Shown one piece after another: positions 2,109 to 51,126 of a stretch of DNA of 64,000 bases (its first letter is position 1; the number at the start of each line of letters is the position of its first letter). This DNA is from Hydrangea macrophylla. Its lineage: Eukaryota > Streptophyta > Magnoliopsida > Cornales > Hydrangeaceae. Location of the stretch: contig CM066998.1 of assembly GCA_033977485.1 (NCBI GenBank), positions 55,394,274 to 55,458,273 of the forward strand, written 5' to 3'. Under the pieces are notes generated by a model that was not told the DNA's origin, did not search any database, and saw nothing but the letters and a program-made list of their open reading frames with translations. The translations under genes and the position numbers were made by a program.

Positions 2109-3937
2109 AAGTCATTTACTTCCATTTAGAGGAGAGACATGGAAGCTTAGAGAGAGCTTAGGAAGAAACTCTAGAGAAATCTAGAGAGAGAAAGAGAAAA
2201 AGTCTTCTTCTTCTTCCATTTTTTCCAATCAAGGTGAGTTTTAATCTTATTTTCTTCCATTACCTCTCATATACTCCACATTCAAATCATCTCCAACCAC
2301 CATTCTTGAGTATCTATGAGATAGGAAGCTACTTCCATGTCCAAATGTCAACACATATGAGTAAAACACCAAGCTATAAATCCAATATCTCAATGAATAT
2401 CAACTATTGATTGCTATTTGAATGTTTGTTTATTTTGATGTTCATCTCTCTCTTAACCTCATTTCTTTTGACTTTTCTTTGATTATTTAGTTGTTCATCA
2501 TCATCTAGATGACATGTTGTGTGAGAGAGTGAATCCTTATGGATAGTAGCTCTTGACCTCAAAGACATGTTTGATGGATGATGATTCTACCTTCAATACA
2601 TTCATATGTATTCTTGAAGTCATATTCTCAAACAAAACTATGTTTGTGCAAATAATGTTGGGAGTTCTTTGATGATTCAAGTTTGGATGAGGTTTTAAGT
2701 GGTCACATGGTCATCTCAAGAGTTTAAGTTCATGCTTTGAACATCTATTTCAAAACCCCCATTCAAGAACTCAAACTCTATTTCAAAACCCAAATCCATT
2801 TTCTTCAAGAATAATCCAAAACAGTGAGCTGTTCAGATTCAAAGATTTGATTTGAATTAAATACTTGAGTTATGATGATGAAACCAATTGGAAAATCTTC
2901 TTACGACATCAGTTTGTCTCCAATATTTCCCATCAATTATAGAGATATGAAAGTATTATTTTCAGATTTAAGAAGTTCATATTCATAATCTGCCTCTGTT
3001 CTCACAGAATATTTACCTGACTTCTTGCACTTATTCTGGATGTTTCCGTCATTGTACATATACCTTTCTATTTTTTTTTATGAAACATGGGTGTCTTAGG
3101 AAACGTTTGGTATATAATGGGTTATCATAAACCATTTCTTTGATTTAGGAAAAATCATACAAAATTAGTCAACAGTGTAGCTTTTGTTTCTGAGTCATGT
3201 GTACATTCTGATTTATTTCTTTTAATCTGTGATAGCTATTGAGGTTTGGCTTTTTGGGTTATTTTCTAGACACAATAAGTATGATCTCTGATTTTTCCCA
3301 CATTTGTCTAGGCATGTTTGACCTCCCATTATGATGTTCTAAAGTAATGCATACAGTTTGTCCACTATTCACAGCATGTCATTTTTTTTTACTTTCACAA
3401 TTTGATGCAACACTCTCTTGTATCTTGTCACACCCGTTCCAGAAATTTACGTTTTTCAGAATGTATCATTTGATATTTTGAAATATTAATGTTTATTAAT
3501 ATTGAGTTGAGGTTGACTGTGGGTCAACGGTGAAGTGTCAGTAAGGACACGAAGAAATTGGTAATTGAGATTTTCATTGGCACGAGTAAATGACATTTAT
3601 ATGATTTAAATGTTATTTGACTTATCTGGTATTCTATGAATAGTGAATTATACCTGTGTAGTATAATTTCTGATAGTTTCGATATTGTTATATCATTTTG
3701 AGAACTGTAGTGAGAACGTGAGTGATACGTTAATTAAAAAGGTAGGTTGTGTAGAGATTCCACAGAATATAGTTTTCGGACGTTATTTTCGGACCCAAAC
3801 GAAACCTAGTCGAAAACTTTTGGAATTTATAATTTTCACTCGTAAAGGCATAAAATGGACGTGTGCGAAGTTTCATGGATTAATTAGTGGTTTGAGAAAC
3901 TTGCGGGGAGGTAAACATAATTCCCCGAAAGTTTGCC

Positions 3938-3945
3938 TATATATA
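3938..3945 (+). promoter_or_regulatory. TATA box of the Tekay-like 5' LTR
   Basis: TATATATA in GTTTGCC-TATATATA-GG, followed 45 bp on by a GA-rich leader. The same box is at 10879-10886 in the 3' LTR. Confidence 0.6.
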
Positions 3946-5059
3946 GGTGAGGATGAGATTTCATTCTCATCCAAACACTCACAAATATCTAGAGAGAGGA
4001 GAGAGAAAAGGAGATTAAGCCAACGGGCTTTGCGACGACATACGACGACCGTTCGACCGTCAGATTTTCTCCAGATTTTAGATTTGAACTCATGGAGGTA
4101 AGATCTACATTTTGATACCACTTAGGTCGTGTTTGGCCAATTTTTGTAAAAATATTAATTCTGGACTTTTGGGAAAAATCAGGTAAAACTTGTAGGAATC
4201 GCGTATAAATTGAAATCCGACGATTATTTAGCCCCTTAGACGATCCTTCAAAGTTTGAAGAGATTCGCACGAGGTATGAATTCTAGATCTATGAAATATA
4301 TGGATTTTCATGTTTTGGACATCACTTTTGATATTCTTGGATCCGGACGAAATTCATGTATTAATTAGGCCCGTTAATTATGCACATGAAATTATGATAA
4401 AAGCACGTATAAATGTCTATGTGAGCATGTTATGTGTCTACTTGGGTCAAAGGGGAGTTTGGTGCAAATTCATCCGGAGTAAGCTCCTCGAACCTTGTGG
4501 ATTGTGATCTTGTTGGAATTGGAAATTTTGGTTGTGTCTGGATTGGAGGTGGGCCCAACCAGTACACGGTACCTGGTATGGAGGAAGGCCCAACCAGTGT
4601 ACGAGATGCGTGGGAGAGGTGGGACTTCTACGGCATCAGCCGGATGAATGCGTACCACTCACCCTAGAGACTATTTCTATGTGTTTTAGATGCTTAAACC
4701 ATGAATTGTCATATAAGCATATATTTAGAATTGTACGCTCAGCATATAGCTGAGCAGTGGAGATGTACTCCATTGCAGGTAAGAAGAAAGACACGAAGAA
4801 GCGCGATGAGTGAGGCCGATGAACGCCGGGGAAATCACACTTGTATATGTTTTTGTTTTAAGTCCTAAAACTTGTGTAATAATTGGGATTTGTAACATGA
4901 TGTAATATAAACATGGATTAGTTTCGCAGTATTGTAATCTTGTAATTGAACGTCTGTAATTGTGTTTTAATATGTTGAAAATCAGTTATGGTTGTTATTG
5001 TTGTTGGTATTGAGAAGCATGAGTTGTTAGTTTTCAACACAGGGCTGCCAGCAGGGGAG

Positions 5060-5382
5060 CAGTCGACTGGACCCAAGGTCAGTCGACTGGATCTCGTGTG
5101 TTTGAGACACTGAAAGTGAATAGTAAGAGAAGCAGTCGACTGGACCCCTTTGTCAGTCGACTGAACACTGTAGATTTTTGGCTACTGCTTCTATTAATGG
5201 AAAAGCAGTCGACTGAGTCCCTATATCAGTTGACTGGACCCCTTTTTAGTAAGTTGGATTTTGGGTTCTGCTTAACCCAGTCGACTGAGCAGTCGACTGG
5301 ACCTCTGTTGAGGGTTTAGGGTTTTAGTTTCTGCCAGGCACAGTCGACTGGACCCTAGTACAGTCGACTGGGCAGTCGACTG
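5060..5382 (+). repeat. cluster of eleven CAGTCGACTG palindromes (5' LTR)
   Basis: Words start at 5060, 5080, 5133, 5154, 5206, 5227, 5278, 5290, 5341, 5361 and 5373. Ten are the perfect 10-bp palindrome CAGTCGACTG and the one at 5227 is CAGTTGACTG. Pairs 20-21 bp apart recur every 72-73 bp over the first four blocks. Most words are followed by GACCC, GAACC or GAGTCC. The gaps are 20, 53, 21, 52, 21, 51, 12, 51, 20 and 12 bp. Confidence 0.9.
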
Positions 5383-5618
5383 AACCTCTGTATTTTGGAA
5401 TGGACTCTTGTGAACACTTTTGATTGAACAAAACTTTTTGTAACTCTGATTTCAATGGATTTTTACAACTCAGAGGGGAATGTTTCCTAAGTTTTAAATT
5501 ATCCAGGGTTGTTTTAAAGTTCTTTCCGCTGCATATAATTATATTGTTGTTGGTTGAGCCTTGGTGGCGTGCCACGTGTCCTAATTCCACGCGTAGTGGG
5601 ATGGGTCGTGACATTTAT

Positions 5619-5630
5619 TGGTATCAGAGC
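5619..5630 (+). other. primer-binding site, initiator tRNA-Met type
   Basis: TGGTATCAGAGC starts 5 bp after the LTR end and is complementary to the 3' end of plant initiator tRNA-Met. This is the usual minus-strand primer of many plant gypsy and copia elements. Confidence 0.85.
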
Positions 5631-5816: not shown

Positions 5817-6890
5817 ATGGATGACCGAGAGTTATCACCCCATACCCGACGAATGAATGAAATGGCAGCAATGATGGGGAATATGGGGGAAATGATAAGG
5901 GATATAGCGGAGCGACTGCCTCCCACACCCCACATCGAAGTGGAACCGATAACTATAGTACATGCACCAGAAAATAGGGGTATGAGACCAATATCTGAAC
6001 AGTTTACTCGAAAGAAACCGATGGAATTTCATGGAACACCCGATACGACGTTAGCAGAACATTGGGTAATGGGTATGGAGTGAATTTTTTGATCTATTCC
6101 GATGACAGATAGGGAGAAGATTGAGAACGCAAGTGATGTATTGAGAGGTGAAGCTCAGAACTGGTGGGTAAACGTGTTAGATCAAGGGGCACCGATTACT
6201 TGGGAAGGGTTTAAGGCAGAATTCAATCGCCGATTCTTTCCGCGAGCCGCCTACAATGCAAAGAAGCGAGAATTTGATAACCTGAAGCAGGGAGATATGA
6301 CTGTGACTGAATATACTTCTAAGTATAACGCTTTGTTGAGATTTGGAAAGGGTTCTGTGCCCGAAGAGGAAGATAGGGCAAGAAAGTTCGAAGAGGGTTT
6401 AAGGGATAATATCCGGTTGAGAGTAGAGACCTACGAGCATTCTACTGTTGCAGCGGTACAACAGACGGCGCTTGTAGCCGAAAGTGGAATAGAGAGATCG
6501 AGACAAAATCACCAAGGAAAGCGAAGTCATGAGGGTGGTGACCGAAGTCAGGGTGGATCTTTTAAGAAGTCATTTTCACGAGGCTCTAGTTCTGGTTTTA
6601 ATGATTCCAGGAGAATACCCAGTAACATACGGTTGTGTTCACTTTGCAACCGACCACACACCGGTCGATGTTTTCTGGCCAATTTTCAGAACAGATCTAT
6701 AGGGGGAAATAGTGTGAGTTCTACGATCTACCCGCAACTCAAGTGCTTTGATTGTGGTACTTTGGGACACCGAGCGAAGGATTGCCCAAAGAAGCGTTCT
6801 CAACAAGGGGCAAGTTCTATGGCTTCTAGTGGTTCGAAGCCTAAGCAGTCTAGTGACGGAGGACGAAGAACAGAGCAACGTCAGGGAAGA
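5817..6890 (+). pseudogene. gag of the Tekay-like element, two in-frame stops
   Basis: The frame opens with MDDRELSPHTRR at 5817 and continues, after TGA codons at 6081-6083 and 6090-6092, into the capsid-like segment (REKIENASDVLRGEAQNWW). It ends in a zinc knuckle, CFDCGTLGHRAKDC (6744-6785, CX2CX4HX4C), preceded by a second Cys/His patch near 6630 and a Ser/Gly/Lys-rich stretch. Gag packages element RNA into virus-like particles in the cytoplasm. The two stops remove the link between the N-terminus and the capsid body, so full-length Gag cannot be made without readthrough. Confidence 0.88.
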
Positions 6891-7265
6891 TCATTCCAGA
6901 TGAACCCTGGAGACGTGGCTGCTACTGATACAGTGGTCTCAGGTATGGTGCTTGTATGTTCGCACTTAGCACGCATACTTGTTGACTCGGGATCTACGCA
7001 TTCATTTGTATCGCATGCTTTTGTTGAACATTTGAATGTTAAGTCGGCACCGTTAGGATATGAATTGTCTATTGCTGTGCCACTTAGTAAATCGATAACG
7101 ACGTCTACTGTATATAAGAACTGTGAGATCAAGCTAGGTGAGAAGTTGATGACTGTAGACCTTATACCGATTGTAGTGAACCATTTCGATGTGATACTAG
7201 GAATGGATTGGTTAGCTCTTAACCAAGCCACAAAAGACTGTGAATGGAAAGAGGTTAATTTTTGA
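6891..7265 (+). pseudogene. retropepsin (aspartic protease) of the Tekay-like element
   Basis: In the same frame as gag. The catalytic Asp is in ILVDSGSTHSF (GAC at 6984-6986), and the downstream flap and helix region includes VILGMDWLALN. It would cleave Gag-Pol. The frame ends at TGA 7263-7265, just after the protease, where the polyprotein should run on into reverse transcriptase; the same frame reopens at 7272. Confidence 0.85.
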
Positions 7266-7271
7266 TCACCG

Positions 7272-8800
7272 ATGCATGGGAACTTTTGCTTTCAAGGGAG
7301 TGGGGTTACACCTCCGCCGTACTTGGTTTCAGCTATTCGAGCGGGAAAGTTGTTGAGAAAGGGGTGTCATGGATTCCTATGTTCAGTGACTAATGTCTCA
7401 GCGACCGAATCTATAGTAGAGGATATTCTGATAGTGCGAGAATATTCAGATGTATTTCCCGATGACCTACCAGATGTTCTTATTGAGAGGGAGGTAGAAT
7501 TCACTATTGAGGTTATACCAGACGCAAGACCGGTATCCAAAGTACCGTATAGGATGGCACCAGTAGAACTAAGGGAACTGAAAGTTCAACTACAAGAGTT
7601 ACTTGACTTGACAAAGGTTTCATTCGACCTAGTATTTCACCGTGGGGAGCTCGAGTGTTGTTTGTAAAGAAGAAAGATGGTTCGATGAGAATGTGTGTTG
7701 ATTACCGGGAACTGAACAAGTTAACGATTAAGAATAAGTACCCATTACCCATAATTAATGACTTATTTGATCAACTTCGTGGGGCACAAGTGTTCTCCAA
7801 GATAGACCTGAGATCGGGTTATCATCAGTTGAAAGTAAAGGCCGAAGATGTTGAGAAAACAGCTTTCAGAACACGTTATGGACACTATGAGTTCTTAGTT
7901 ATGCCATTTGGAGTTACCAATGCACCAGCTGCGTTCATGGATCTTATGAATCGAGTATTCAAAGATTATTTGGATGACTTTGTGATTATATTCATCGACG
8001 ATATCCTTGTATATTCGCCGAGTGAGATAGAACACGAGAATCACTTGAGGTTGATACTTCAGAGACTGCGGGAAAAGCAGTTATTCGGAAAATTCAAGAA
8101 ATGTGAATTTTGGTTACCTAGCATTACTTTTCTTGGTCACGTGATTGATAAGAATGGAGTATCAGTTGATCCTTACAAAGTAGAAGCTGTATCTAATTGG
8201 CAGAGGCCGACATCCGTATCTGAAATTCAAAGTTTCTTGGGATTAGCGGGATACTACCGCCGTTTTATTGAACATTTCTCAAAGATTTCATTGCCAATGA
8301 CAAAGTTAATGAGAAAGGGTGTTACATTTGAATGGAGTCGGGAATCTGAAGACAGTTTCCAAGAATTGAAAGCACGACTGACGAGAGCACCTATTCTGAC
8401 AATACCATCCGGAACCGAGGGGTTTGTGATCTATAGTGATGCATCGCATCAAGGGTTGGGATGCGTGTTGATGCAAGGTGGTAAAGTAATTGCTTATGCT
8501 TCTAGGCAATTGAAGACACATGAGGTTAACTATCCTACCCATGATCTTGAATTAGTCGCGGTAATTCATGCTTTAAAAATTTGGAGACATTACTTGTACG
8601 GAGAAAAGTGTGAGATATTCACGGACCACAAGAGTTTAAAATATATTTTCACCCAACGGGATTTGAATATGAGATAGCGAAGATGGTTGGAGTTGAGGAA
8701 GGATTATGATATTTCGATAGAGTACCATCCGGGAAAGGCGAATGTAGTAGCCGATGCATTAAGCCGGAAGACGCCGAGGAATTTAGCCGATGAGCTAACA
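7272..8800 (+). pseudogene. reverse transcriptase and RNase H of the Tekay-like element
   Basis: The linker and N-terminal palm (REYSDVFPDDLP, PVSKVPYRMAP) read from 7272 in the gag frame. A tandem duplication of TTGAC at 7603-7612 then shifts the frame, and the rest reads in the next frame from about 7613. The catalytic motif FIDDIL is at 7991 onward. RNase H follows, with [10 protein letters not shown] near 8432 and [10 protein letters not shown] near 8623. A TAG at 8675-8677 interrupts RNase H; codons resume with the tail SIEYHPGKANVVADALSR. These enzymes copy element RNA into DNA. The frameshift and stop make the pol inactive. Confidence 0.9.
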
Positions 8801-9700
8801 CAACAAAAAGAATTGGTAAAAGAGATGGAACGCTTAGAGTTGGATGTAATTCCAGAGACTAGTGGTAGTTTACTGATGGCGATCATTGCACACCCAGATA
8901 TTATCGACGAGATCAAGAAGGAACAATTTAACGATGTCTATTTGTGCAAAATGAGAGATGAGATACCTTTGGGAAAACGACCTGGTTTGGCATTAGAACA
9001 GGGAATTCTGAAGTTGGAGAACCGATTATGTGTACCAAATGTGAAAGACCTGAAAGAACGACTTTTGGAGGAAGCTCATAGTACAAAATATTCAGTACAC
9101 CCGGGAAGTAATAAGATGTACAGAAACTTGAGAGAAAACTTCTGGTGGAAGGGTATGAAACGCGAAGTTGCTAAATACGTTTCTGAATGTTCGGCATGTC
9201 AGCAAGTCAAAAGCAGAGAGACAAGTACCCGCGGGGTTACTACAACCTTTGCCAGTGTCGGAATGGAAGTGGGACGAGATCACGATGGATTTTGTTTTAG
9301 GATTTCCACAATCAATCAATAAGAATGATAAGATTTGGGTTATAGTTGACCGATTAACCAAGTCAGCTCATTTTCTACTGATCAAAACGACTAAACCATC
9401 CAAATTGGCAGAATTGTATGTGAAAGAGATTGTAAGACTACATGGAGTACCAGCTGTGATTATATCCGATCGTGATAGTAGTTTTACGTCAAGATTTTGG
9501 GGAAGTTTACAGAAAGCTATGGGTACTAAATTGAGTTTCAGTATCGCATTTCATCCTCAGACCGATGGACAGACAGAGCGTATGATTCAGACCTTAGAAG
9601 ATATGTTGAGATTGTGTGTATTAGACTTTGGTAATGATTGGGAGCACCATTTGCCATTAATTGAATTTGCTTATAACAACGGATTTTAGTCGAGTATTGG
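8801..9700 (+). pseudogene. integrase (zinc-binding and catalytic domains) of the Tekay-like element
   Basis: The HHCC zinc-binding region spans about 9080-9205 (HPGSNKMYRNL ... CSACQQ). A one-base change in the A-run at 9209-9212 shifts the frame. The rve core then follows: [11 protein letters not shown] (first Asp, near 9285), [10 protein letters not shown] (second Asp, near 9470) and [13 protein letters not shown] (Glu, near 9572). A TAG at 9687-9689 falls just before the GMAPYEALYG motif. All three acidic residues of the DDE triad survive, but the chain is broken twice. Confidence 0.88.
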
Positions 9701-10325
9701 AATGGCACCGTATGAAGCTCTGTATGGCCATAAGTGTCGATCACCGGTTTGTTGGACCGAGGTTGGAGAAAGGAAGTTGTTAGGACCTGAGTTAATACAG
9801 GTGACTACTGAGAAAGTGAAGTTGATTCAAGAGCGACTCAAGGTAGCTCAGAGCCGATATAAGAGTTATGCAGACTCTAAACGACGACCGATGAATTTTG
9901 AAGTTGGAGATTTTGTATACTTGAGGACATCGCCTTCTAAAGGCATTGTACGATTTGGAAAGAGGGGAAAGCTCAATCCGAGATTCATAGGACCTTTTGA
10001 GATCCTAGAGAGGGTTGGTCCAGTAGCTTACCGATTGGCATTGTCGCCAAAGTTGGAATATGTGCACATTGTGTTTCACGTATCTATGTTGAGACGTTGT
10101 ATGACCGATACGAGTAAGATCATTGTGCCTGAACCACTACAGATTCAGGGAGACTTGACTTATGTGGAACAACCGGTCGAGATTCTAGATCGAAAAGAAC
10201 AAGTTTTGAGAACCAAGACTATTCCAATGGTGAAAGTGCTATGGCGTAGTCACACTATTGAAGAGGCTACGTAGGAAAATGAGGAAGACATGAGGAATGA
10301 GTATCCATACTTATTCGACGCATGA
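9701..10325 (+). pseudogene. integrase C-terminal domain, chromodomain-type tail
   Basis: The frame restarts at GMAPYEALYG and shows VGDFVYLRTSP, FIGPFEILERVGPVAYRLALSP and VFHVSMLRRC, the GPY/F region. It then has VLWRSHTIEEAT, typical of Del/Tekay chromoviruses, whose tails direct insertion to heterochromatin. A TAG at 10272-10274 stands where this motif normally has Trp, 16 codons before the likely natural stop TGA at 10323-10325. The truncation probably removes the last residues only. Confidence 0.82.
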
Positions 10326-10366: not shown

Positions 10367-12554
10367 TGTCACACCCGTTCCAGAAATTTACGTTTTTGAG
10401 AATGTATCATTTGATATTTTGAAATATTAATGTTTATTAATATTGAGTTGAGGTTGACTGTGGGTCAACGGTGAAGTGTCAGTAAGGACACGAGGAAATT
10501 GGTAATTGAGATTTTCATTGGCACGAGTAAATGACATTTATATGATTTAAATGTTATTTGACTTATCTGGTATTCTATGAATAGTGAATTATACCTGTGT
10601 AGTATAATTTCTGATAGTTTCGATATTGTTATATCATTTTGAGAACTGTGGTGAGAACGTGAGTGATACGTTAATTAAAAAGGTAGGTTGTGTAGAGATT
10701 CCACAGAATATAGTTTTCGGACGTTATTTTCGGACCCAAACGAAACCTAGTCGAAAACTTTTGGAATTTATAATTTTCACTCGTAAAGGCATAAAATGGA
10801 CGTGTACGAAGTTTCATGGATTAATTAGTGGTTTGAGAAACTTGCGGGGAGGTAAACGTAATTCTCCGAAAGTTTGCCTATATATAGGTGAGGATGAGAT
10901 TTCATTCTCATCCAAACACTCACAAATATCTAGAAAGAGGAGAGAGAAAAAGAGATTAAGCCAACGGGCTTTGCGACGACATACGACGACCGTTCGTCCG
11001 TCAGATTTTCTCCAGATTTCAGATTTGAACTCATGGAGGTAAGATCTACGTTTTGATACCACTTAGGTCATGTTTGGCCAATTTTTGTAAAAATATTAAT
11101 TCTAGACTTTTGGGAAAAATCAGGTAAAACTTGTAAGAATCACGTATAAATTGAAATTCGACGATTATTTAGCCCCTTAGACGATCCTTCAAAGTTTGAA
11201 GAGATTCGCACGAGGTATGAATTCTAGATCTATGAAATATATGGATTTTCATGTTTTGGACATCACTTTTGATATTCTTGGATCCGGGCGAAATTCATGT
11301 ATTAATTAGGCCCGTTAATTATGCACGTGAAATTATGATAAAAGCACGTATAACTGTCTATGTGAGCATGTTATGTGTTTACTTGGGTCAAAGGGGAGTT
11401 TGGTGCAAATTCATCCGGAGTAAGCTCCTCGAACCTCGAGGATTGTGATCTTGTTGGAATTGGAAATTGTGATTGTGTCTGGATTGGAGGTGGGCCCAAC
11501 CAGTACACGGTACCTGGTATGGAGGAAGGCCCAACCAGTGTACGAGATGCGTGGGAGAGGTGGGCTTCCTACGGCATCGACCGAATGAATGCGTACCACT
11601 CACCCTAGAGACTATTTCTATGTGTTTTAGATGCTTAAACCATGAATTGTCATATAAACATACATTAAGAATTGTACGCTCAGCATATAGCTGAGCAGTG
11701 GAGATGTACTCCGTTGCAGGTAAGAAGAAAGACAAGAAGAAGCGCGATGAGTGAGGCCGATGAACGCCGGGGAAATCACACTTGTATATGTTTTTGTTTT
11801 AAGTCCTAAAACTTGTGTAACAATTGGGATTTGTAACATGAAGTAATATAAACATGGATTAGTTTCGCAGTATTGTAATCTTGTAATTGAACGTCTGTAA
11901 TTGTGTTTTAATATGTTGGAAATCAGTTATGGTTGTGATTGTTGTTGGTATTGAGAAGCATGAGTTGTTAGTTTTCAACACAGGGCTGCCAGTAGGGGAG
12001 CAGTCGACTGGACCCAGGGTCAGTCGACTGGATCTCGTGTGTTTGAGACACTGAAAGTGAATAGTAAGAGAAGCAGTCGACTGGACCCCTTTGTCAGTCG
12101 ACTGAACACTGTAGATTTTTGGCTACTGCTTCTATTAATGGAAAAGCAGTCGACTGAGTCCCTATATCAGTCGACTGGACCCCTTTTTAGTAAGTTGCAT
12201 TTTGGGTTCTGCTTAACCCAGTCGACTGAGCAGTCGACTGGACCTCTGTTGAGGGTTTAGGGTTTTAGTTTCTGCCAGGCACAGTCGACTGGACCCTAGT
12301 ACAGTCGACTGGGCAGTCAACTGAACCTCTGTATTTTGGAATGGACTCTTGTGAACACTTTTGATTGAACAAAACTTTTTGTAACTCTGATTTCAATGGA
12401 TTTTTACAACTCAGAGGGAAATGTTTCCTAAGTTTTAAAATACCCAGGGTTGTTTTAAAGTTCTTTCCGCTGCGTATAATTATATTGTTGTTGGTTGAGC
12501 CTTGGTGGCGTGCCACGTGTCCTAATTCCACGCGTAGTGGGATGGGTCGTGACA
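10367..12554 (+). repeat. 3' LTR of the Tekay-like element
   Basis: 2188 bp, TG...CA. It has TATA at 10879-10886 and the same eleven-word palindrome cluster at 12001-12323. Its word set differs from the 5' copy by CAGTCGACTG where the 5' LTR has TTGA, and by CAGTCAACTG at 12314 where the 5' LTR is intact. Confidence 0.95.
12001..12323 (+). repeat. cluster of eleven CAGTCGACTG palindromes (3' LTR)
   Basis: Same positions as in the 5' LTR with an offset of 6941. One word has decayed to CAGTCAACTG. Spacing is unchanged. Confidence 0.9.
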
Positions 12555-14344
12555 TATCTAGATGAACCCATATCCCATAAACATGTTCTTTACCATTTTT
12601 AGCATGCTATATCATGTCATGTATCATCTATCCTCTCATGTATCATACTCTCATAGATTCTTGAGTTTGGTTTCTAAATAAAACCATGTTTTGCAAATAC
12701 TTGGAAAGTTCTTGAAATGAGTTAGGAAGGGATATTCCAAGTGGTTAGAATATTCATCCAAGTTCTGGAAGTATACTTTCAAAACCCCCCATTTCAAAAC
12801 CCCCCTTTTAAACCCCTCATTTTGATTTCAAGAGATAAACTTGTGTTTCTCAAAACTCTCAAAACAGTGAGTCATTTAACTTCAAGGAATTATTTTGAGT
12901 TCATTACTCAATGTATGAATGCAAGACCACTTGGAAAGTCTTTCTAACTCATTATAGAACATCCATGATTTTTGGCTTGACTTGGAAGCACTTGAAAAGG
13001 GCCCATTCTTGCCCAAACATTCTCTCCAGATATTCTGTTTTTGCTGTCACAGCAGCTTGGTCTACTTTCAACTTGTTTTACAGAAAAATTTTCCCAAACG
13101 AGTGGTCCCAACTTATTTTTCCCTTGAACTTCAATGTCTTAGGGAACCTTCTGTATAATATGGGCCTCTAGATATTTTGTTTTCATTTTCTAAGAGTTTC
13201 TAACATTTCAGTCGACAGTACGGACTCTGTTTCTGAATAACCTCTATTGTTAATATGATTTCTCTCAATCTGTGACAGTTATTAAAGATTGGCTTTTTGG
13301 ATTGTGTTCTAGACACAATAAGGTAGATCTCCATAATAAATTATGTATTGAAAACATTCCTAACCCCTCTTTTCAATTTTCAAAAGATCATGTTGCTGTT
13401 CTGTCCAATATTCACAGCAAGCGCACTTTTACTTCCCCCTTTTGATTTGATGCTTACATGCACTCCAAATTAGCTCATGTCTTAGGAAGTAGTTCATACT
13501 ACATTTGTACATATCCCATGATGATTTCATTCATTCATTCATACACATTCTAGACTTCTAAGTCATTCTAGGAATTCATGAACACAAAGCACACTACAAC
13601 CTTGGCACATTCTGGATACATACATTGCATCCATGCAAGATTTGGGACTTTTGTGACTCCTAATCTAAGAAGATTATAAGGAATGATCATGATCACACGT
13701 TCATGCTTCCCCTCGATCTAATCATCCTTTTTCATCCGTCCCGGGGATTGAGAGATCTTCTATTCTCAAAGATTAACATGCATCATTCTAGCTTGCTAAG
13801 CATCCTTGTTTTCTTTGATTTATTTGTTTCAAGAACAATTCATGTCTCCTTTAGATTAGGGAAACTTAATTACTTGATACATGATTAGACGATTTTTCCT
13901 AAGTTTATTTGTGTGATTTTTCACTTTACATTGTATGATAATTGACTTAGATCTTATGAATGATATCTTGTCTTTTGATTTTCAATTTCAAGATTCTTAT
14001 GTGATGTAATATACTATCATAGTATTAATTGCCGAACCATACATAGTATAAGATGATTATTTGGATGCTAATTGAGGCCCATCGAAAGACGGGACGAGTT
14101 GAGGGTGTTTTAGTCGCGACAAAGGCTCCTTCCTCTCTCGTACCAAAACCCCGAGCCAAGTTCTTTGGTTATGAAGGGCCGGTGCCCTTTATCCATTTGG
14201 GTGAGTCAAAATTAGGCTTCTTTGTTCCTTAAAGACCAAGTGGCGACTCTGTATCTGTTTTCAACAGACCTTTTCTCTTCCTTTGATCCAAATCAATTTC
14301 AAACAAAAACAACAAAAGAGGTGGAACGCCGCGTGTCCACAATC

Positions 14345-14956: not shown

Positions 14957-15518
14957 ACTATCACCATATTAACCAGTTTCTTCCAGAAACTCTGTCCAGA
15001 TATCCCAGATATAACCATATTAACCAGTTTCTCCCAGAAACTCTGTCCAGATATCCCAGATATAACCATATTAACCAGTTTCTCCCAGAAACTCTATCCA
15101 GATATCCCAGATATAACCATATTAACCAATTTTTCCCAGAAACTCTGTCCAAATATCCCAAATATAACCATATTAACCAGTTTTTCCCAGAAACTCTGTC
15201 CAGATATCCCAGATATAATCATATTAACCAGTTTCTCCCAGAAACTCTGTCTAGATATCCCAGATATAACCATATTAACCAGTTTCTCCCAGAAACTCTG
15301 TCCAGATATCCCAGATATAACCATGTTAACCACTTTCTCCCAGAAACTCTGTCTAGATATCCCAGATATAACCATATTAACCAGTTTCTCCCAGAAACTC
15401 TGTCCAGATATCCCAGATATAACCATATTAACCAGTTTTTCCCAAAAACTTTGTCCAGATATCCCAGATATAACCATATTAACCAGTTTTTCCCAAAAAA
15501 TCTGTCTAAATCTTCCAG
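14957..15518 (+). repeat. minisatellite 1: 51-bp unit, 11 copies
   Basis: Each unit contains ATATTAACCAGTTTCTCCCA and AACTCTGTCCAGATATCCCA. Because 51 is divisible by three, the array is open on both strands. On the plus strand it would read as a 17-residue repeat (ITILTSFSQKLCPDIP and a linker Asp). Copies differ by point changes only. Degenerate relatives of the CCAGTTTCTCC core continue to about 15850. It lies between the primer site and gag. Confidence 0.9.
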
Positions 15519-15870
15519 ATTTCCCAGATATACCAGTTTCTCCCAGAAACTCTAGAAACTCTATCCAAATTTCCTATAAATACCCAAAGTACCTGTTTTC
15601 CCAGCATCTCCGCCCAAATCACCTAGAAATGCTCGAATATACATGTTTCTCCAAGAAACTCTATCCATTTTTCTCAAAAATACCCAAAATACCAGTTTCT
15701 CCTAGAAGCTTAGTCCAAATCAACCAGAAATCCCTATTTCTCCTAGAAACTCAAATGACTTCTAGAAATTTCTCTGAATCTTCCAAATCCCTGTTTCTCC
15801 AAGAAACTCTGTCCAAAATTCCCGAAGTATCCCGGAAATCCCTGTTATCCCTTGATGATCATACTAGAAA

Positions 15871-16916: not shown

Positions 16917-18048
16917 AGCTACACGGTGAACTGATAGTGTTTGGAACTTCTGCTAAAAAAAAAGTAAGAATAAATGGGTCACAAAGACACTCCATTTGAG
17001 ACCGGGTCGAGTCAAGTTGAGTCTGTTCTATGTTCCAAGTCCATTTCAAATCTAGTCTTGTGATCGAGTCTGTCTGTCATCGAGTTGTTAATAAGTCTAT
17101 GAACCTTCTCTATTGATGGAATGAAATCTCATTTTGCTTGATCTGATGTGCCTAGTCATAAATGCATGAATCACTAAACTGAAGTGTCACTTTTCAAATT
17201 ACCATGGATATTACTCTGCTAATAATATTTCTATAACAAAACAAAAAAGAATCCTGAAAGGTTAAAGTCGATTTTCACGCTGACACTGATGAAGAGCTGA
17301 GAATTGAATAGTCTTACTTTAAGAATTTAAAGATGCTCTTACCTCAATCTTGAAAAGACATACTTGAAACTGACTTGGGGCTTTCCCAACACCCTTTTTC
17401 CACCATTTCGAAGCCTTAAGTCCAATCCAATTGGGAGCCACGCAATTTGTCTGATTGAAAGCAATGCAAACTTAGCCCTTGATGGTAGCCAAACATTTCA
17501 GTGAGTTTCATCTCCACTTTCAAAAAAAAAAAAAACAAAAAAAAAATAAAAAAAAAAAGAAAAGAAAAGAAAAAGCTCGCTAGGTTGAAAACCCGAAAGG
17601 GCACCTAGGCAAAAGTTAGAGCTGAAAAAGGTATTGATTTCCAAAATCTGACCCTAGCCAGTGAAAATGTTGAAGAAAATTTTGATGAAACAAATGAGAG
17701 AATCATACGCTTCAAGATACATCTTAAGAACATGCCAAGATCACATTTCAAAAGGCACAGAATGATAACAAATAAATTCTGAGAGCTAACATGCACATTC
17801 TGGAATTCTGAGATTGCGATTGAAAGATCTCACAAGAATCGACTACATTAAAAAGCAAAATTGACTGGCTAGGCGAAAGTGAAAAGGATCAATCCTCAAA
17901 ACAAAACAAAAAGAAAAAGAAAAAGGAAAGAAAGGGAGATTGAAACTGAATCCTTTTATTCAAAGCTACCATAAGTGGCTCAAGTTTGAACTTCTTTGAC
18001 GATAGGTTTGAAAAACCCTCATACCTCAAACCCCTTATTTCAGACTTT
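16917..18048 (+). other. non-coding spacer after gag in the Ogre-like element
   Basis: No supported frame. An A-rich tract lies at 17521-17572. A 50-bp motif with CTAGGTTGAAAACCC and CACCTAGGCAAAAG starts at about 17576 and recurs, diverged, at about 18836 and 18920. GTCGAGTCAAGTTGAGTC-type text lies near 17007. Confidence 0.45.
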
Positions 18049-18800
18049 GCCTTGAACTACGCTCAACCTGATTCCCACTCGGGGATACGTAGGCAACCGC
18101 ATCGGTTCGGTCGACACCATCATAATCAAACCAATTTCCTTCAAGCCTCGCCTTGAACTACGCTCGACCTGATTCCCACTTGGGGATACGTAGGCAACTG
18201 CATCGGTTCGGTCGACACCATCATAATCAAACCGATTTCTTTCAAGACCTTGCCTTGAACTATGCTCGACCTGATTCCCACTCGGGGATACATAGGCAAC
18301 CGCATCGGTTCGATTGACACCATCATAATCAAACCAATTTCCTTCAAGCCTCGCCTTGAACTACGCTCGACCTGATTCCCACTCGGGGATACGTAGGCAA
18401 CTGCATCGGTTTGGTCGACACCATCATAATCAAACCGATTTCTTTCAAGACCTTGCCTTGAACTACGCTCGACCTAATTCCCACTCGGGGATACGTAGGC
18501 AATCGCATCGGTTCGATCGACACCATCATAATCAAACCAATTTCCTTCAAGCCTCGCCTTGAACTACGCTCGACCTGATTCCCACTCGGGGATACGTAGG
18601 TAACCGCATCGGTTCGGTCGACACTGTCATAATCAAACCGATTTCTTTCAAGACCTTGCCTTGAACTACGCTCGACCTGATTCCCGCTCGGGGATACGTA
18701 GGCAACCACAACGGTTCGGTCACCAACCTACCTAAAAATCAACCCGCTTCTTTCCAACCATGGCCCGAACTACGTTGGACCTGATCCCCGCTCGGGTGTA
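18049..18800 (+). repeat. minisatellite 2: 101-bp unit, about seven copies, dimeric order
   Basis: Units contain CCTTGAACTACGCTCGACCT and GGGGATACGTAGGCAACCG. Their ends alternate strictly: AATTTCCTTCAAGCCTCG, then GATTTCTTTCAAGACCTTG, three times over. The amplified block is therefore a dimer of about 202 bp. The last copies are diverged. A single diverged copy of the core (TGAACTAC ... GGGATACGTAGGCAG) lies near the 3' LTR at about 32079-32122. Confidence 0.88.
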
Positions 18801-19764: not shown

Positions 19765-20440
19765 CGTTCATGTAACATAAGTCCATGAGTGGCTGTTGAT
19801 GATCTTCCTTTCTCCTAGCAACATAAGTCCATAAGTGGCTGTTGCTCATCTTCGTTCATGCAACATAAGTCCATGTGTGGCTGTTGATGATCTTCTTTCA
19901 TCCTAGCAACATAAGTCCATGGGTGGCTGTTGACTGTCTTCCTTCGCTCATGCAACATAAGTCCATGAGTAGCTATTGATGATCTTCCTTCCTCCTAGCA
20001 ACATAAGTCCATGTGTGGCTGTTGATGATCTTCTTTCATCCTAGCAACATAAGTCCATGAGTGGCTGTTGGTCATCCTCCTTCATTCATGCAACAAAAGT
20101 CCACGAATGGCTGTTGATAATCTTCTTTTGTCCATGCAACATAAGTCCACGAATGGCTGTTGATGATCTTCTTTTATCCATGCAACATAAGTCCACGAAT
20201 GGCTGTTGACGATCTTCCTTCGTCCTAGAAACATAAGTCCATGAGTGGCTGTTGAACATCTTTCTTCGTTCATGCGACATAAGTCCATGAGTAGCTGTTG
20301 ATGATCTTCTTTCATCCTAGCAACATAAGTCCATGAGTGGCTGTTGACCATCTTTCTTCGTTCATGCAACATAAGTCTATGAGTGGCTGTTGATGATCTT
20401 CTTTCATCCTAGCAACATAAGTCCATAAGTTGCTATTGAT
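19765..20440 (+). repeat. minisatellite 4: about 45-bp unit, about 15 copies
   Basis: Each unit contains CAACATAAGTCCATGAGTGG and CTGTTGATGATCTTC. Two linker variants, CATCCTAG and GTTCATG, occur in irregular order. Open frames across it on the minus strand are products of the repeat. Confidence 0.85.
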
Positions 20441-20789
20441 TATCACCCTCGATCAGTGTCAACCCACAGCAAATCATCTCTGTCACAAATAGAATGATAC
20501 CTTTACTCCCATTTAATGGACGTATTTCCTTCTTCCTAGCAGAGTACATTATCCTTCAGCTCCCAAAGGCCTTAACCGGCTCTTTTGGATTGAACATTAC
20601 AAGATTTGATTAACCGCGAGAGATTCAAAGATGGATCCCGATTTTGGGCCAGCAAGATTTGATCAAATATGAGAGATTCAAATTTGAATCCTGGTCCCCG
20701 GTCAAGAAAAGTAGTCGCTTCATCCCCAGCAGATTCAGTTTAATCCCCAGCAGGCATATCGATTCATACATCGGCAGTTCAATCCTGAC
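20441..20789 (+). other. spacer between minisatellites 4 and 5
   Basis: Short direct repeats of AGATTTGATCAA/AGATTTGATTAA and TCCCCAGCAG; no gene seen. Confidence 0.35.
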
Positions 20790-21178
20790 AGTCACAGTAG
20801 TTCACTGTCGACTCGTCATCTTCATTAGTACATCATCAGTTCAATCCATGACAGTCACGGTAGTTCACTGTTGACTCGTCATCTCATTCGAACATCATCA
20901 GTTCAATCCATGACAGTCACAGTAGTTCACTGTCGACTCATCATCTCGATTCGTACATCATCAGTTCAATCCATGACAGTCACGGTAGTTCACTGTTGAC
21001 TCGTCATCTCATTAGTACATCGTCAGTTCAATCCATGACAGTCACAGTAGTTCACTGTCGACTCGTTATCTCGATTCGTACATCATCATTTCTTTTGATC
21101 ACAGTTAGTCTAACCATTGGTCCAATCCATGACAGTCATAGTAGTTCACTGTCGACTCATCATCTCGATTTGTTCATC
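20790..21178 (+). repeat. minisatellite 5: about 60-bp unit, six copies
   Basis: Units carry TCAATCCATGACAGTCACAG and TAGTTCACTGTCGACTC. One interruption at about 21085-21115 carries a different filler. Confidence 0.8.
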
Positions 21179-22020
21179 ACTAGCCCTCTAGATTGAGGCA
21201 AATCCTTCATCGCCAGCCCTCTAGATTGAGGCAAATCCTTCATCGCCAGCCCTCTAGATTGAGGCAAATCCTTCATCATCAGCCCTCTAGATTGAGGCAA
21301 ATCCTTCATCAACAGTCCTCTAGATTGAGGCAAATCCTTCATCATCAGCCCTGTAGATTGAGGCAAATCCTTCATCGCTAGCCCTCTAGATTGAGGCAAA
21401 TCCGTCATCATCAGCCCTCTAGATTGAGGCAAATCCTTCATTGTTAGCCCTCTAGATTGAGGCAAATCCTTCATCGCCAGCCCTCTAGATTGAGGCAAAT
21501 CCTTCATTGTTAGCCCTCTAGATTGAGGTAAATCCTTCATTATTAGCCCTCTAGATTGAGGCAAATCCTTTATCATCAGCCCTCTAGATTGAGGCCCTCT
21601 ATATTGAAGCAAATACTTCATCACCAGCCCTCTAAATTAAGACAAATCCTTCATTGTCAGCCCTCTAGGTTGAGGCAAATCCTTCATCGCTAGCCCTCTA
21701 GATTGAGGCAAATCCTTCATCAACAACCCTCTAGATTGAGGCAAATCCTTCATCATCAGCCCTCTTGATTGAGGCAAATCCTTCATCATTAGCCCTCTAG
21801 ATTGAGGCAAATCCTTCATCACCAGCCCTCTAGATTGAGGCAAGTCATTCATCATTAGCCCTCTAGATTGAGGCAAATCCTTCATTGTCAGCCCTCTAGA
21901 TTGAGGCAAATTCTTCATTGTCAGCCCTCTGGATTGAGGCAAATCCTTCATCATCAGCCCTCTAGATTGAGGCAAATCCTTCATCACCAGCCCTCTAGAT
22001 TGAGGCAAATCTTTCATTGC
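21179..22020 (+). repeat. minisatellite 6: 30-bp unit, about 28 copies
   Basis: AGCCCTCTAGATTGAGGCAA followed by ATCCTTCATC repeats head to tail with few changes and one short break near 21595. Thirty is divisible by three, so the minus strand reads as repeated MKDLPQSRGL. There are no variable spacers, so this is not a CRISPR-like array. Confidence 0.92.
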
Positions 22021-22249
22021 AAACCCTTTAGGTTAGGGTAGAACTTCCTCATCTATCAATCATTTTAGAGAGATTCTCATAGAGTCCCCTACCATCCCCA
22101 GCAGAAGATAACAGAAGTGCGAACCAATTCTCCAGACTTTATCATCATAAGGATTGGCCAGCGATTGAAAACATCACCCGCAGTCAAATCACCTCGATTC
22201 CCAGGGCAAGCACTGTCTATTCACAATTCAAGGATCCATGTCCAAACAA

Positions 22250-24454: not shown

Positions 24455-24610
24455 ATCTCCCCCTTTTTGATGATGGCAAACAACCAATGAAAGATATGCC
24501 AATATAAGCACATTTGGTCATTTTCATATTATCATTCATAATGGATACCATATGTTAAAGAACATGAATGATAACTACCCAAATATTTCTCCCCAATACT
24601 TCTCATATTT
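24455..24610 (-). repeat. 156-bp 3' tail fragment of a SIRE-like unit
   Basis: It holds the polypurine tract (AAAAAGGGGGAGAT on the minus strand) and the first part of the 3' untranslated region. It then jumps at 24610/24611 into the middle of an LTR (CATATTT joined to AACAATT) with about 2 bp of shared sequence. Confidence 0.8.
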
Positions 24611-25439
24611 AACAATTGACAAGTTGTGTGATTGAAATAGATATTTTCCAATTAGTTGATCAACATGAAATGGTGTGGGAAAACATGTATTTATAGGCCA
24701 AGAAAGATTATAGCCGTTGGTGGCAAGTTTGGTAATTAAAAGCCCCTTTAAAAACTAGCCGTTATGCCTTTTCAGGTCGCTTCAGTCGACTGTAACATGA
24801 AGCAGTCGATTGGGCCTTGAAGCAGTCGACTGAGATGTCTTTCCAGAGGGTTCTGTTTGCATTCTGCTCACTTCGGTCGACTGCATCGGGCCTTCAGTCG
24901 ACTGCCCCTCCCTGTTTGACAACCTGACACATCTCCACTAAAATGGCCATAACTCCCTCTACAAAACTTGGATTTTCGATCCGTTTGATGTTTTGGAAAC
25001 TAGATTCAAATACCTTTCCAACCATATAAGATTCAATATTTAATTATTTTCCAATTGGTTGGGGCATTGCTTTAAAGATGACCCATTTAAAATTTATTTC
25101 CAAAACTTTAACTTTTAGAATTTGTTTGAGCCCCTAAGATGTGAGATCAAGATGCCTTACAATGATGGTCCTAGACTTCAACCAAGGATGAAATATTTTC
25201 AAGTCTTAAAGTTTAATCCTTGTTGAGCTCCTTGTAATCTTGATCTACATCAATTGAATCTCATGCACACAAAGATATTAAAACATTGATACAATATTAA
25301 TACATGAGATTATATATGAGCATAAAAATGACTATGATAATAACAAAGAATGAATCACTATGAATCATGTAATTATCATAGCATATTTGACATCATCAAA
25401 ACATAATTAAATATGCCTTAATATACCTTAAGGCTAACA
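24611..25439 (-). repeat. LTR B, truncated, of the SIRE-like element
   Basis: 829 bp, corresponding to the first 60% of the minus-strand LTR (TGTTAGCC end present, CCAACA end missing). It includes the palindrome cluster and TATA. Confidence 0.85.
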
Positions 25440-25863
25440 ATCTCCCCCTTTTTGATGATGGCAAACAACCAATGAAGGATATGCCAATATAAGCACATTT
25501 GGTCATTTTCATATTATCATTCATAATGGATACCATATGTTAAAGAACATGAATGATAACTACCCAAATATTTCTCCCCAATACTTCTCATATTTCTCCC
25601 CCTTTGACATTATCAAAAAGATTTGGGGATAAAACACGAAGCTCCCCCTCACAATAGGCATACAAATCGAAAGGCCAAAATGATACCAAAAATAAACAAA
25701 TATAACCATATGTGAGAAAATGAATATATGAGAGTGCTCCCCCTAAGCATGTGCAATGATAAAAGATACCAAAAGATATGAATAGAGAGCATATTCTCCC
25801 AAAAGATACCAATAATAAAGTTGGCGAACTCAAAATATAAGATAAACAACAATTCAGTTGGAT

Positions 25864-26008
25864 CAGTCGACTCCTTAGTCGACGTCCCTAGGCAGAGAGT
25901 TTAAAACATCAATGCAGTCGATGCCACAGTCGACTTAACAATGCAGAATCAAAAAATTCAAAGCTTCACACCTGAATCAGTCGACTGTGTCGGGGTACCA
26001 GTCGACTG
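25864..26008 (-). repeat. second TCGA-word cluster, in the SIRE-like internal region
   Basis: Words at 25864, 25876, 25915, 25927, 25978 and 25999 (CAGTCGACTC, TAGTCGACGT, CAGTCGATGC, CAGTCGACTT, then two CAGTCGACTG). Gaps are 12, 39, 12, 51 and 21 bp. The other internal copy has the same set near 29006-29151. Confidence 0.75.
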
Positions 26009-27138: not shown

Positions 27139-27187
27139 GGATCTTAACTCAAAATTTTTCAAAGACTTTTGAAAAGAGAAGAGCCGA

Positions 27188-45385: not shown

Positions 45386-45453
45386 CAATTGATTGGATGG
45401 GGTCCAATCGATTGGCAAGGGTTCAATCGATTGGACGGGGGTTCAATCGATTG
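45386..45453 (+). repeat. cluster of four CAATCGATTG palindromes in copia solo LTR
   Basis: CAATTGATTG at 45386, then CAATCGATTG at 45405, 45424 and 45444. Gaps are 19, 19 and 20 bp. The last word ends 24 bp before the TATAAATA box. Confidence 0.85.
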
Positions 45454-51015: not shown

Positions 51016-51126
51016 TTCGATCAATCGAACATCCTTCGATCGCTTGAACTTTGAATTACTCGAGCGCTTGAACTGGATTCGATCGATCGAACACTCGATC
51101 GCTTGAACCTCCTTCGATCGTTCGAA
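51016..51126 (-). repeat. cluster of six TTCGATCGATCGAA-type palindromes
   Basis: 14-mer words at 51016, 51035, 51059, 51078, 51094 and 51113. TTCGATCGATCGAA (51078) is the perfect form; others are TTCGATCAATCGAA, TTCGATCGCTTGAA and TTCGATCGTTCGAA. Gaps are 19, 24, 19, 16 and 19 bp. A minus-strand TATATATA lies 75 bp downstream. Confidence 0.8.

What the first reader, a model, noticed from the sequence alone, without database searches (positions are those of the whole stretch)
5060..5382. Eleven CAGTCGACTG palindromes phased on one face of the DNA helix in a gypsy LTR
Seen: word starts are 5060, 5080, 5133, 5154, 5206, 5227, 5278, 5290, 5341, 5361 and 5373. Relative to the first, the offsets are 0, 20, 73, 94, 146, 167, 218, 230, 281, 301 and 313. 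Divided by 10.4 bp, every offset lies within about 1.2 bp of a whole number of turns. The gaps (12, 20-21, 51-53) are not one tandem unit, yet all keep phase. Inference: an array of sites for a dimeric DNA-binding factor, or a structure used in chromatin positioning or element expression. Nothing I know describes this.
Basis: partly seen in the sequence, partly recalled or inferred. Interest (0 to 1): 0.86.

Follow-up and report, generated by a model that had tools for sequence, protein, structure and literature searches.

The report
Phased palindrome arrays in retrotransposon LTRs
A plant jumping gene carries rows of one short mirror-image DNA word at near-constant, helix-matched distances; the same layout recurs with other words in other jumping genes of this genome, and the whole row seems to be swapped like a cassette, which points to a shared protein-binding control switch.

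Summary
Ten exact CAGTCGACTG words plus one CAGTTGACTG lie at the stated places in the 5' LTR (3426-5613) of a gypsy element; the 3' LTR has the same layout. Phase coherence at 10.4 bp is R=0.94. It is not one LTR's oddity: CAGTCGACTG pairs 10-40 bp apart number 61,095 in this 2.2-Gb plant genome, against 2 for a palindrome of equal composition. The commonest pattern is a two-word unit (20-21 + 49-55 bp). Two other palindromes (GGATCGATCC, CGACCGGTCG) use nearly the same grid (20-23 + 49-51), and a Sirevirus-type Copia element shares word and spacings. LTRs 92-93% identical on both sides carry unrelated 640-670-bp array modules with different words: the array is exchanged as a cassette. Words are more conserved than spacers. 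Phasing is not universal: 9 of 24 loci hold one word about 100 degrees off, and two other word classes are unphased. Best reading: a swappable cis-regulatory cassette of sites for a dimeric DNA-binding protein, related to published Sirevirus repeated motifs but in Gypsy, downstream of the TATA box and on a helical grid. No binding, expression or small-RNA data were available.

The parts
3426..5613 (+). 5' LTR (2188 bp, TG...CA) of a Ty3/gypsy element
   Evidence: LTR pair 97.8% identical; ends read; flanked by TATCT at 3421-3425
10367..12554 (+). 3' LTR, with TATCT at 12555-12559
   Evidence: identical flanking pentamers = target-site duplication
5060..5382 (+). array of 11 palindromes in the 5' LTR (10 exact CAGTCGACTG, one CAGTTGACTG), gaps 20,53,21,52,21,51,12,51,20,12
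12001..12323 (+). the same array in the 3' LTR (10 exact, one CAGTCAACTG)
3936..3947 (+). TATA box CCTATATATAGG, about 1.1 kb upstream of the array
   Evidence: aligned TATA motif in 6 of 7 LTRs compared, the window's included
4098..4099 (+). splice-donor-like GAG|GTAAGATC in the presumed leader
   Evidence: GAG|GTAAG lies at the aligned place in the same 6 LTRs; splicing inferred
4777..4778 (+). splice-acceptor-like TTGCAG|GTAAG
   Evidence: similar in L001 and L002; inferred
5619..5630 (+). primer binding site TGGTATCAGAGC
   Evidence: assignment to tRNA-Met recalled
5817..10274 (+). gag-pol remains (capsid, zinc knuckle, protease, RT, RNase H, integrase), broken into several frames
24783..24904 (-). 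array of the same word in a Sirevirus-type Copia LTR copy (partial), about 90 bp upstream of TATAAATA on the minus strand; gaps 20,20,51,21
   Evidence: sister copies at 23797-23918, 27924-28045, 31058-31179
25864..26008 (-). second array of the same word between the gag-like region (by eye) and the 3' LTR of that Copia element; gaps 63,51,21
   Evidence: sister copy 29006-29150
45386..45453 (+). array of a different palindrome (CAATCGATTG, 3 exact and 1 one-mismatch) just upstream of TATAAATAG; gaps 19,19,20
51016..51126 (+). array of TTCGATCGATCGAA-like palindromes upstream of TATAAAC; spacing 19/24/19/35, a different class

Best explanation
The array is a cis-regulatory cassette of the LTR: paired palindromic sites for a protein that binds as a symmetric dimer. 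Pairs lie about two helical turns apart (20-23 bp) and successive pairs about five turns apart (49-53 bp), so most bound dimers face one side of the DNA and can contact each other or a shared partner. The cassette most likely acts on DNA as an enhancer (or as a tether for an activator or anti-silencing factor). In the gypsy element it lies about 1.1 kb downstream of the TATA box, in the presumed leader; in Copia LTRs it lies just upstream of the TATA box. Arrays grew by duplication of a two-word unit of about 73 bp, words were then kept by selection while spacers drifted, and whole cassettes, words included, were exchanged between LTRs, probably by template switching in reverse transcription. 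SHOWN: words, spacings, word conservation, sharing of the word between Gypsy and Copia, cassette replacement. INFERRED: dimer binding, enhancer role, growth by duplication, template switching.
For: Real and abundant: 20,559 CAGTCGACTG-N10-CAGTCGACTG, 61,095 pairs at 10-40 bp, 50,498 at 41-70 bp; reversed-pattern controls 0 in all three; a same-composition palindrome 2 pairs, its reversed control 1; 9 stretches in 257 Gb of prokaryote genomes at gaps 9-12, 0 in viral contigs. Position-only sample: in 20 stretches of 10 kb, 8 palindrome clusters in 6 stretches (5 of the 8 on the 20-22/50-53 grid), against 0 mirror-word and 0 direct-complement clusters. Same grid, other words: GGATCGATCC 12,967 pairs, 50 of 50 listed at 20-23 bp, and 17 of 20 listed neighbouring pairs 71-73 bp apart; CGACCGGTCG 3,243 pairs, 47 of 50 listed at exactly 22 bp. 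Same spacings in a Sirevirus-type Copia LTR: 20,20,51,21. L054 uses 42 and 41 bp where others use 49-53, about one turn less. Word constraint: 15 gypsy LTR loci, words 92.2% identical to the window against 82.5% for spacers, exact 20-bp pairs removed; 0 of 360 slid masks reach the difference, best slid 0.087 against 0.097. Cassette exchange: L005 against L053 is 92.2% identical left of the array (396 bp) and 92.8% right of it (375 bp), with no match better than E=0.065 between the L005 module and any of four relatives. Rigidity: 2 of 59 long gaps depart by more than 3 bp from 52, against 21% of 143 control intervals of 45-60 bp.
Against: No binding, expression, methylation or chromatin data exist here. 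Phase is not universal: 17-18/24 doublets in 9 of 24 loci and a lone 24-bp gap in 4 more (L004, L038, L039, L045); R at 10.4 bp is 0.61-0.79 in 7 of 13 arrays with the three phased words; best-fit periods differ (10.15-10.55); five of these 13 arrays do not reach the 5% level of their random-gap null on their own; the word classes CAATCGATTG and CGATCGATCG are unphased (R 0.10-0.54). Two of the neighbouring CGACCGGTCG pairs listed lie 81 bp apart, off the grid. Arrays of one family share descent, so effective sample sizes are small. The listed places come from the first part of one contig and include close copies. The RNA of the array folds far better than shuffles (z -6.98), so an RNA role is open. 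The control compares LTR pairs, the array figure a deviation from one value, so that contrast is only indicative.
Confidence: 0.58

Rival explanations
1. RNA-level feature: the self-complementary words make hairpins in the element transcript. These serve the element (dimerisation, packaging, processing) or, as proposed for maize Sireviruses, feed host small-RNA silencing.
For: The 343-nt array as RNA folds at -146.1 kcal/mol, z -6.98. By TATA position the gypsy array is transcribed. PMC10760457 (passages) reports that excess small RNAs map to the palindrome clusters of maize Sireviruses, citing Bousios 2016 (not held).
Against: A hairpin does not need 49-53 bp between pairs, nor centre distances of 20-23 bp for both 10- and 14-bp words. 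In Copia LTRs arrays lie upstream of the TATA box. Of 84 changed positions in 120 would-be neighbour hairpins, 1 is restored to a Watson-Crick pair and 37 are G-U. The folding score follows from the palindromes themselves.
Confidence: 0.2
2. By-product only: a two-word 73-bp unit was duplicated in tandem and the regular spacing is inherited, with no present function of phase.
For: Units are partly alike (L023 68%, L017 72-78%); within one family spacing is inherited; single short arrays give little phase evidence on their own.
Against: Words are kept while spacers diverge. Three different words share near-equal spacings, and arrays of different words show no match better than E=0.069. A variant of the long gap is about one turn shorter (41-42 bp).
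Confidence: 0.17
3. Transfer of modules between unrelated elements explains a shared word and grid, rather than convergence on a common factor.
For: Arrays of the same word in different elements align over 31-38 bp: Copia with gypsy at E 3.6e-5 to 1e-4, L008 with L017 at E down to 4.6e-10 (36 bp at 89%). Module swapping occurs within gypsy LTRs.
Against: The alignments are short and hold the words; transfer does not give three different words nearly the same grid. It could coexist with the best explanation.
Confidence: 0.15
4. [quoted passage not shown]
For: Words differ between close relatives and change as a block, as VANC targets vary between related TEs (PMC5735166, abstract and passages). 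An array lies about 650 bp upstream of a PF20167 reading frame in L017.
Against: Apart from gag-pol, the frames of 100 aa or more in the window element are one in each LTR that spans the TATA box, one antisense in the 3' LTR and one antisense to gag-pol; none was searched further. The trans factor is unknown.
Confidence: 0.12

Closest known systems
Sirevirus (Ty1/copia) repeated motifs, RM; Bousios et al. 2010, PMC2829016 (abstract, passages and section 9 read)
   Same: Palindromes repeated 8 or more times, in LTRs near the TATA box and, in elements with an envelope-like gene, upstream of it; consensus differs between elements; CGGTCGACCG (Vitis) and ACAATCGATTGT (Tnd-1) are close to words here; a role in activation was suggested.
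   Different: There the motif was called Sirevirus-specific, with a CGG-CCG core in all but Tnd-1. Here it is also in a gypsy LTR, downstream of the TATA box, mostly without a CGG core, and on a helical grid; the passages and section read describe no phasing, no sharing with Gypsy and no cassette exchange.
[quoted passage not shown] Bousios et al. 2016 (not held; known here only through passages of PMC10760457, and PMC5311732)
   Same: Palindrome clusters in the LTR regulatory region with strong predicted folding.
   Different: Copia in maize; small-RNA evidence that could not be tested here.
Tnt1/Retrolyc1 subfamilies with different U3 regions; PMC1838419 (passages)
   Same: LTR regulatory region turns over as a module while the rest of the element stays alike.
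   Different: Copia, Solanaceae; in the passages read, no conserved grid on which words are exchanged. A fungal case of LTRs diverging in one half only is crapaud (PMC10787394, abstract only).
VANC target arrays in VANDAL transposons; PMC5735166 (abstract and passages)
   Same: Short motifs in repeats that differ between close relatives and are read sequence-specifically.
   Different: DNA transposons with an own binding protein; the motifs shown are not palindromes; no such protein identified here.
Heat-responsive ONSEN/Copia78 LTR with clustered heat-shock elements (recalled)
   Same: Clustered dyad sites for an oligomeric activator in an LTR.
   Different: The words here are not heat-shock elements (recalled consensus).

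Membership tests
Sirevirus repeated motif (RM) | Palindrome with dyad symmetry, at least eight copies per element | tested here: met
   11 words per LTR
Sirevirus repeated motif (RM) | CGG-CCG core signature (published exception Tnd-1) | tested here: not met
   CAGTCGACTG lacks it; CGGTCGACTG or its complement CAGTCGACCG is a recurrent one-sided variant, 12 of 236 words
Sirevirus repeated motif (RM) | Host element is a Sirevirus (Ty1/copia) | tested here: not met
   Pfam: Retrotrans_gag, Ty3_capsid, RVP_2, RVT_1, Integrase_H2C2, SH3_Tf2-1
Sirevirus repeated motif (RM) | Cluster shortly upstream of the TATA box | tested here: not met
   gypsy array about 1.1 kb downstream of the aligned TATA box
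Sirevirus repeated motif (RM) | Cluster forms a CpG island | not tested
   no CpG-island run made
Sirevirus (the Copia block at 23-31.7 kb, minus strand) | PPT AGGGGGAG followed by AT/TG, PBS TATCAGAGC | tested here: met
   AGGGGGAGAT|TG and TATCAGAGC read; signature
Tekay-type chromovirus (name recalled) | Chromodomain at the end of pol | tested here: inconclusive
   no chromodomain found by Pfam up to E=10 in the last pol frame, 9702-10271
Tekay-type chromovirus (name recalled) | Reverse transcriptase places it in that lineage | not tested
   no tree built
VANC-type anti-silencing system | Element encodes the binding protein | tested here: inconclusive
   outside gag-pol only LTR or antisense frames of 115-138 aa in the list; not searched against families
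VANC-type anti-silencing system | Target region loses DNA methylation | not testable with these tools
   no methylation data

The most novel reading that the evidence does not exclude
Unrelated Gypsy and Copia retrotransposons of this genome obey a common geometric code: palindromes of quite different sequence, but in pairs about two turns apart and, in this class, repeated about every seven turns. The code is read by one structural family of dimeric proteins whose DNA specificity diversifies. Elements change 'language' by swapping the whole cassette, an arms race or niche partition between retrotransposons and host (or TE-encoded) regulators.
Probability: 0.3. Interest if true: 0.88.

Novelty: new variant of a known kind. 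Interest (0 to 1): 0.64.

Why it matters
Palindromic motif arrays in plant retrotransposon LTRs were described in 2010, and that paper found no common binding factor (passages). Tens of thousands of word pairs, three words on one grid, and natural cassette swaps between LTRs that are 92-93% identical turn 'what reads these motifs?' into a simple test: compare sister LTRs that differ mainly in the cassette, and add half-turn insertions between words. If a protein family reads the grid, it could be a general switch for both large superfamilies of plant retrotransposons.

Tried and rejected
Chance: rejected. Prokaryotic or viral source: 9 stretches in prokaryote genomes and 0 in viral contigs at gaps 9-12. 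'All offsets keep phase' as a family rule: rejected, because 17-18/24 doublets occur in 9 of 24 loci and two word classes are unphased. Coding function of the array: none of the five stop-to-stop frames of 50 aa or more that overlap 5000-5450 covers all of 5060-5382. A conserved TATA box between the array and the LTR end: none seen by eye in the window and L001 sequences; the aligned TATA box is at LTR position about 510. Compensatory change in would-be neighbour hairpins: 1 of 84. Gradual symmetric change of words: 0 of 69 variant words is itself a palindrome (words up to 2 mismatches in 25 loci), so word classes seem to change by replacement. Paper search for the exact word: 29 papers hold it; the 20 listed titles concern unrelated subjects. 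A claim that phasing in LTRs is unpublished would rest only on searches of open-access text; it is not made.

Limits: only CAGTCGACTG, GGATCGATCC, CGACCGGTCG and one control palindrome were counted genome-wide; the last three only at 10-40 bp. Lists show 50 places each from the start of the assembly (for the control, both pairs found). Loci L001-L004 and L034-L053 were ascertained by one exact 20-bp pair; L054-L060 by other listed pairs; L005-L024 were chosen by position only (5000 bases of L016 read N). One search ran on the 20 stretches plus the window, on the 20 stretches alone with a complexity filter that drops CGATCGATCG. Counts and distances read off the lists were made by eye. The first word-conservation count used a mask biased towards conserved words and was replaced. 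In one search, 15 gypsy loci were used of 25 loci with this word (L001-L004, L023, L034-L053); Copia loci and loci with a short or no match to the window's LTR were left out. The arrays are 18 chosen examples, not all arrays seen.

Full report
WHAT IS THERE. The window lies on a large contig (C17) of a 2.22-Gb genome held in 19 contigs. It holds a Ty3/gypsy element with LTRs at 3426-5613 and 10367-12554 (97.8% identical), target-site duplication TATCT at 3421-3425 and 12555-12559, primer binding site at 5619-5630, and a broken gag-pol region. It is inserted in another repeat whose other copy lies at 32282-36458. The lineage name Tekay is recalled; Pfam found gypsy-type domains but no chromodomain.

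THE ARRAY. Phase coherence at 10.4 bp is 0.936, the best of all periods from 3 to 60 bp. Because the array looks grown by duplication, a null with three free gap lengths is fairer: p about 0.001. Against ten free gaps, 0 of 20,000 draws reach it.

NOT A SINGLE LOCUS. CAGTCGACTG-N10-CAGTCGACTG occurs 20,559 times; pairs with 0-30 intervening bases 61,095 times and with 31-60 bases 50,498 times. The reversed patterns give 0. A palindrome of equal composition and central CpG, GACTCGAGTC, gives 2 pairs. Prokaryote genomes (257 Gb) hold 9 stretches with gaps 9-12. Of 50 listed pairs, 36 lie at 20-22 bp; the others are 12 (2), 17-18 (3), 24 (5) and 32-37 (4, with a near-word in between). The 50 listed distances are 41-43, 45, 49-54, 63 and 70 bp; no other value between 41 and 70 is seen in that list.

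FAMILY ANATOMY. In 24 loci carrying the word (L001-L004, L034-L053) gaps are mostly 12, 17-18, 20-21, 24 and 49-55 bp; rare others up to 80 bp are 14, 19, 22, 23, 42, 48, 57, 59, 70 and 73. In 16 gypsy LTRs 154 gaps up to 80 bp divide into 68 at 20-21, 57 at 49-55, 14 at 12, 6 at 17-18, 6 at 24, 1 at 22 and 2 at 57-59. The most regular array, L023 from the position-only sample, runs 20,53,20,53,21,51,20,53,21,51,21. Gaps of 12 bp occur in 6 of the 24 loci, those resembling the window's LTR; against L023 one of the window's two aligns to a deletion and the other to an extra word. Nine of the 24 loci carry a 17-18 + 24 doublet (sum 41-42, four turns) that places one word about 100 degrees off the face, and four more have a lone 24-bp gap. 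The strict claim that all words keep phase therefore fails for the family.

OTHER WORDS, NEARLY THE SAME GRID. Twenty 10-kb stretches were taken at pre-set positions. They hold 8 clusters of repeated palindromes in 6 stretches, against none for mirror words or direct-complement words. Five of the 8 are on the grid, L013 partly, the two in L024 not. GGATCGATCC arrays read 21,51,21 and 21,50,21,51,21 (L017) and 22,50,22 (L008); a CGACCGGTCG array reads 22,50,22 (L005). Genome-wide, GGATCGATCC has 12,967 pairs, 50 of 50 listed at 20-23 bp; of 20 neighbouring pairs in that list 17 lie 71-73 bp apart and 3 at 123-146 bp. CGACCGGTCG has 3,243 pairs, 47 of 50 listed at 22 bp (reversed control 2); of 8 neighbouring pairs 5 lie 72 bp apart, 2 at 81 bp and 1 at 22 bp. 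L056-L060 give 20-23 and 49-51 bp. In the window, a Copia element with the Sirevirus polypurine-tract junction and primer site (signature from PMC2829016) carries the gypsy word in its LTR with gaps 20,20,51,21, about 90 bp upstream of TATAAATA, and again in its linker with 63,51,21. L054, also upstream of a TATAAATA, reads 21,42,21,41,12,16,21, its long gap about one turn shorter; L055 reads 21,52,12,39,12,39,12,62,51,21. Two other words, CAATCGATTG and CGATCGATCG, form arrays, several near TATA boxes, that are not on this grid (19/25 and mixed spacing; R at 10.4 bp 0.10-0.54). Phasing is therefore a property of one class of these arrays, not of all. Even within that class best-fit periods range from 10.15 to 10.55 bp, and short arrays prove little singly.

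CONSTRAINT ON WORDS. Across 15 gypsy LTR loci aligned to the window array, word positions are 92.2% identical (1132 cells) and spacers 82.5% (3197 cells) after removing exact 20-bp pairs, by which all but L023 of these loci were found; 0 of 360 slid masks reach the difference, the best coming close (0.087 against 0.097). Variant words are mostly transitions (63 of 81 changes) and none of 69 is itself a palindrome: they look like decay from a fixed word.

CASSETTE EXCHANGE. L005 (word TTCGACCGGTCGAA) and L053 (word CAGTCGACTG) are 92.2% identical over 396 bp left of the array and 92.8% over 375 bp right of it, through the LTR end into the internal region. Between these lie modules of 672 and 638 bp with no match better than E=0.22 to each other. 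L039 and L043 show the same breakpoints against L005 (93% left, 95-97% over the last 57-58 bp of the LTR). L003, 84.7% to L005 up to about the same left point, also joins it again 57 bp before the LTR end. Two different words on nearly the same grid thus sit in otherwise nearly identical LTRs.

POSITION IN THE ELEMENT. A TATA box at LTR position about 510 and a splice-donor-like site about 160 bp further on are found at aligned places in 6 of 7 gypsy LTRs (not in L008). The gypsy array, at LTR positions 1635-1957, is therefore in the presumed transcribed leader. In the Copia LTR and in L054 it is upstream of the TATA box. In L017 one array lies between an unassigned frame that resembles the end of an integrase (by eye; no Pfam match) and, about 650 bp on, a frame with PF20167, where an envelope-like gene would lie in Athila elements (recalled); its other array is not assigned to an element. 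A function at either side of a start site suits an enhancer.

MECHANISM AND RIVALS. The dyad word, the centre distances of 20-23 bp for 10- and 14-bp palindromes alike, the 49-53-bp step and the shorter variant suit dimers stacked on one face of DNA. The RNA-hairpin rival is helped by strong folding (z -6.98) and by reports on maize Sireviruses (PMC10760457, passages), but it does not predict the step between pairs, and only 1 of 84 changed positions is compensated. Plain duplication explains regularity within one array, not the recurrence with other words. Transfer of modules may explain the same word in different elements: L008 and L017 arrays align at E=4.6e-10 over 36 bp.

WHAT IS KNOWN. 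PMC2829016 described palindromic repeated motifs in Sirevirus LTRs and upstream of envelope-like genes, called them Sirevirus-specific, listed the close relatives CGGTCGACCG and ACAATCGATTGT, and found no common binding factor (abstract, passages and section 9). Modular turnover of the LTR regulatory region is known from Tnt1 relatives (PMC1838419, passages). Co-evolving target arrays are known from VANDAL transposons (PMC5735166, abstract and passages). What appears new, within what I read, is the gypsy host, the sharing of one word between Gypsy and Copia, the helical grid kept across words, and the cassette exchange.

CAUTION. Copies of one family are not independent, the listed places come from the start of the assembly, and nothing here shows binding or activity.

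Noticed in passing
window 23076-31715: Head-to-tail LTR/internal/LTR copies of the Sirevirus-type Copia element (period about 3.14 kb), probably from unequal recombination.
   Followed up: partly
L006:3923-4031; L008:7270-7381, 8480-8547 and 8954-9055; L024:3107-3227; window 51016-51126: Arrays of TTCGATCGATCGAA-like palindromes with 19/25/16-bp spacing; those in L006, L008 (8.5 kb) and at window 51 kb sit upstream of TATA boxes by eye; a second, unphased class.
   Followed up: partly
L017:9194-9371 (minus strand): GGATCGATCC array about 650 bp upstream of a reading frame with PF20167 (Transposase_32), possibly an internal promoter.
   Followed up: no
short spacers: Many short spacers between paired words hold GGACCC or GGGTC, in two word classes (by eye); a possible third box between the palindromes.
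   Followed up: no
window 4098 and 4777: Donor-like and acceptor-like sites in the gypsy leader suggest a spliced 5' leader inside the LTR.
   Followed up: partly
window 14959-15553, 18042-18721, 19774-22870: Dense minisatellites: a 51-bp unit x11.7, a 101/203-bp unit, and 46-, 62-, 33- and 30-bp units.
   Followed up: no
L053, L043, L003 and L039 modules: Modules with the same word differ from L053's by 16% (L043), 23% (L003) and 30% (L039), while the left flanks of L053, L043 and L039 are each 92-93% identical to L005 (L003 84.7%): the cassette may also turn over fast within one word class.
   Followed up: partly
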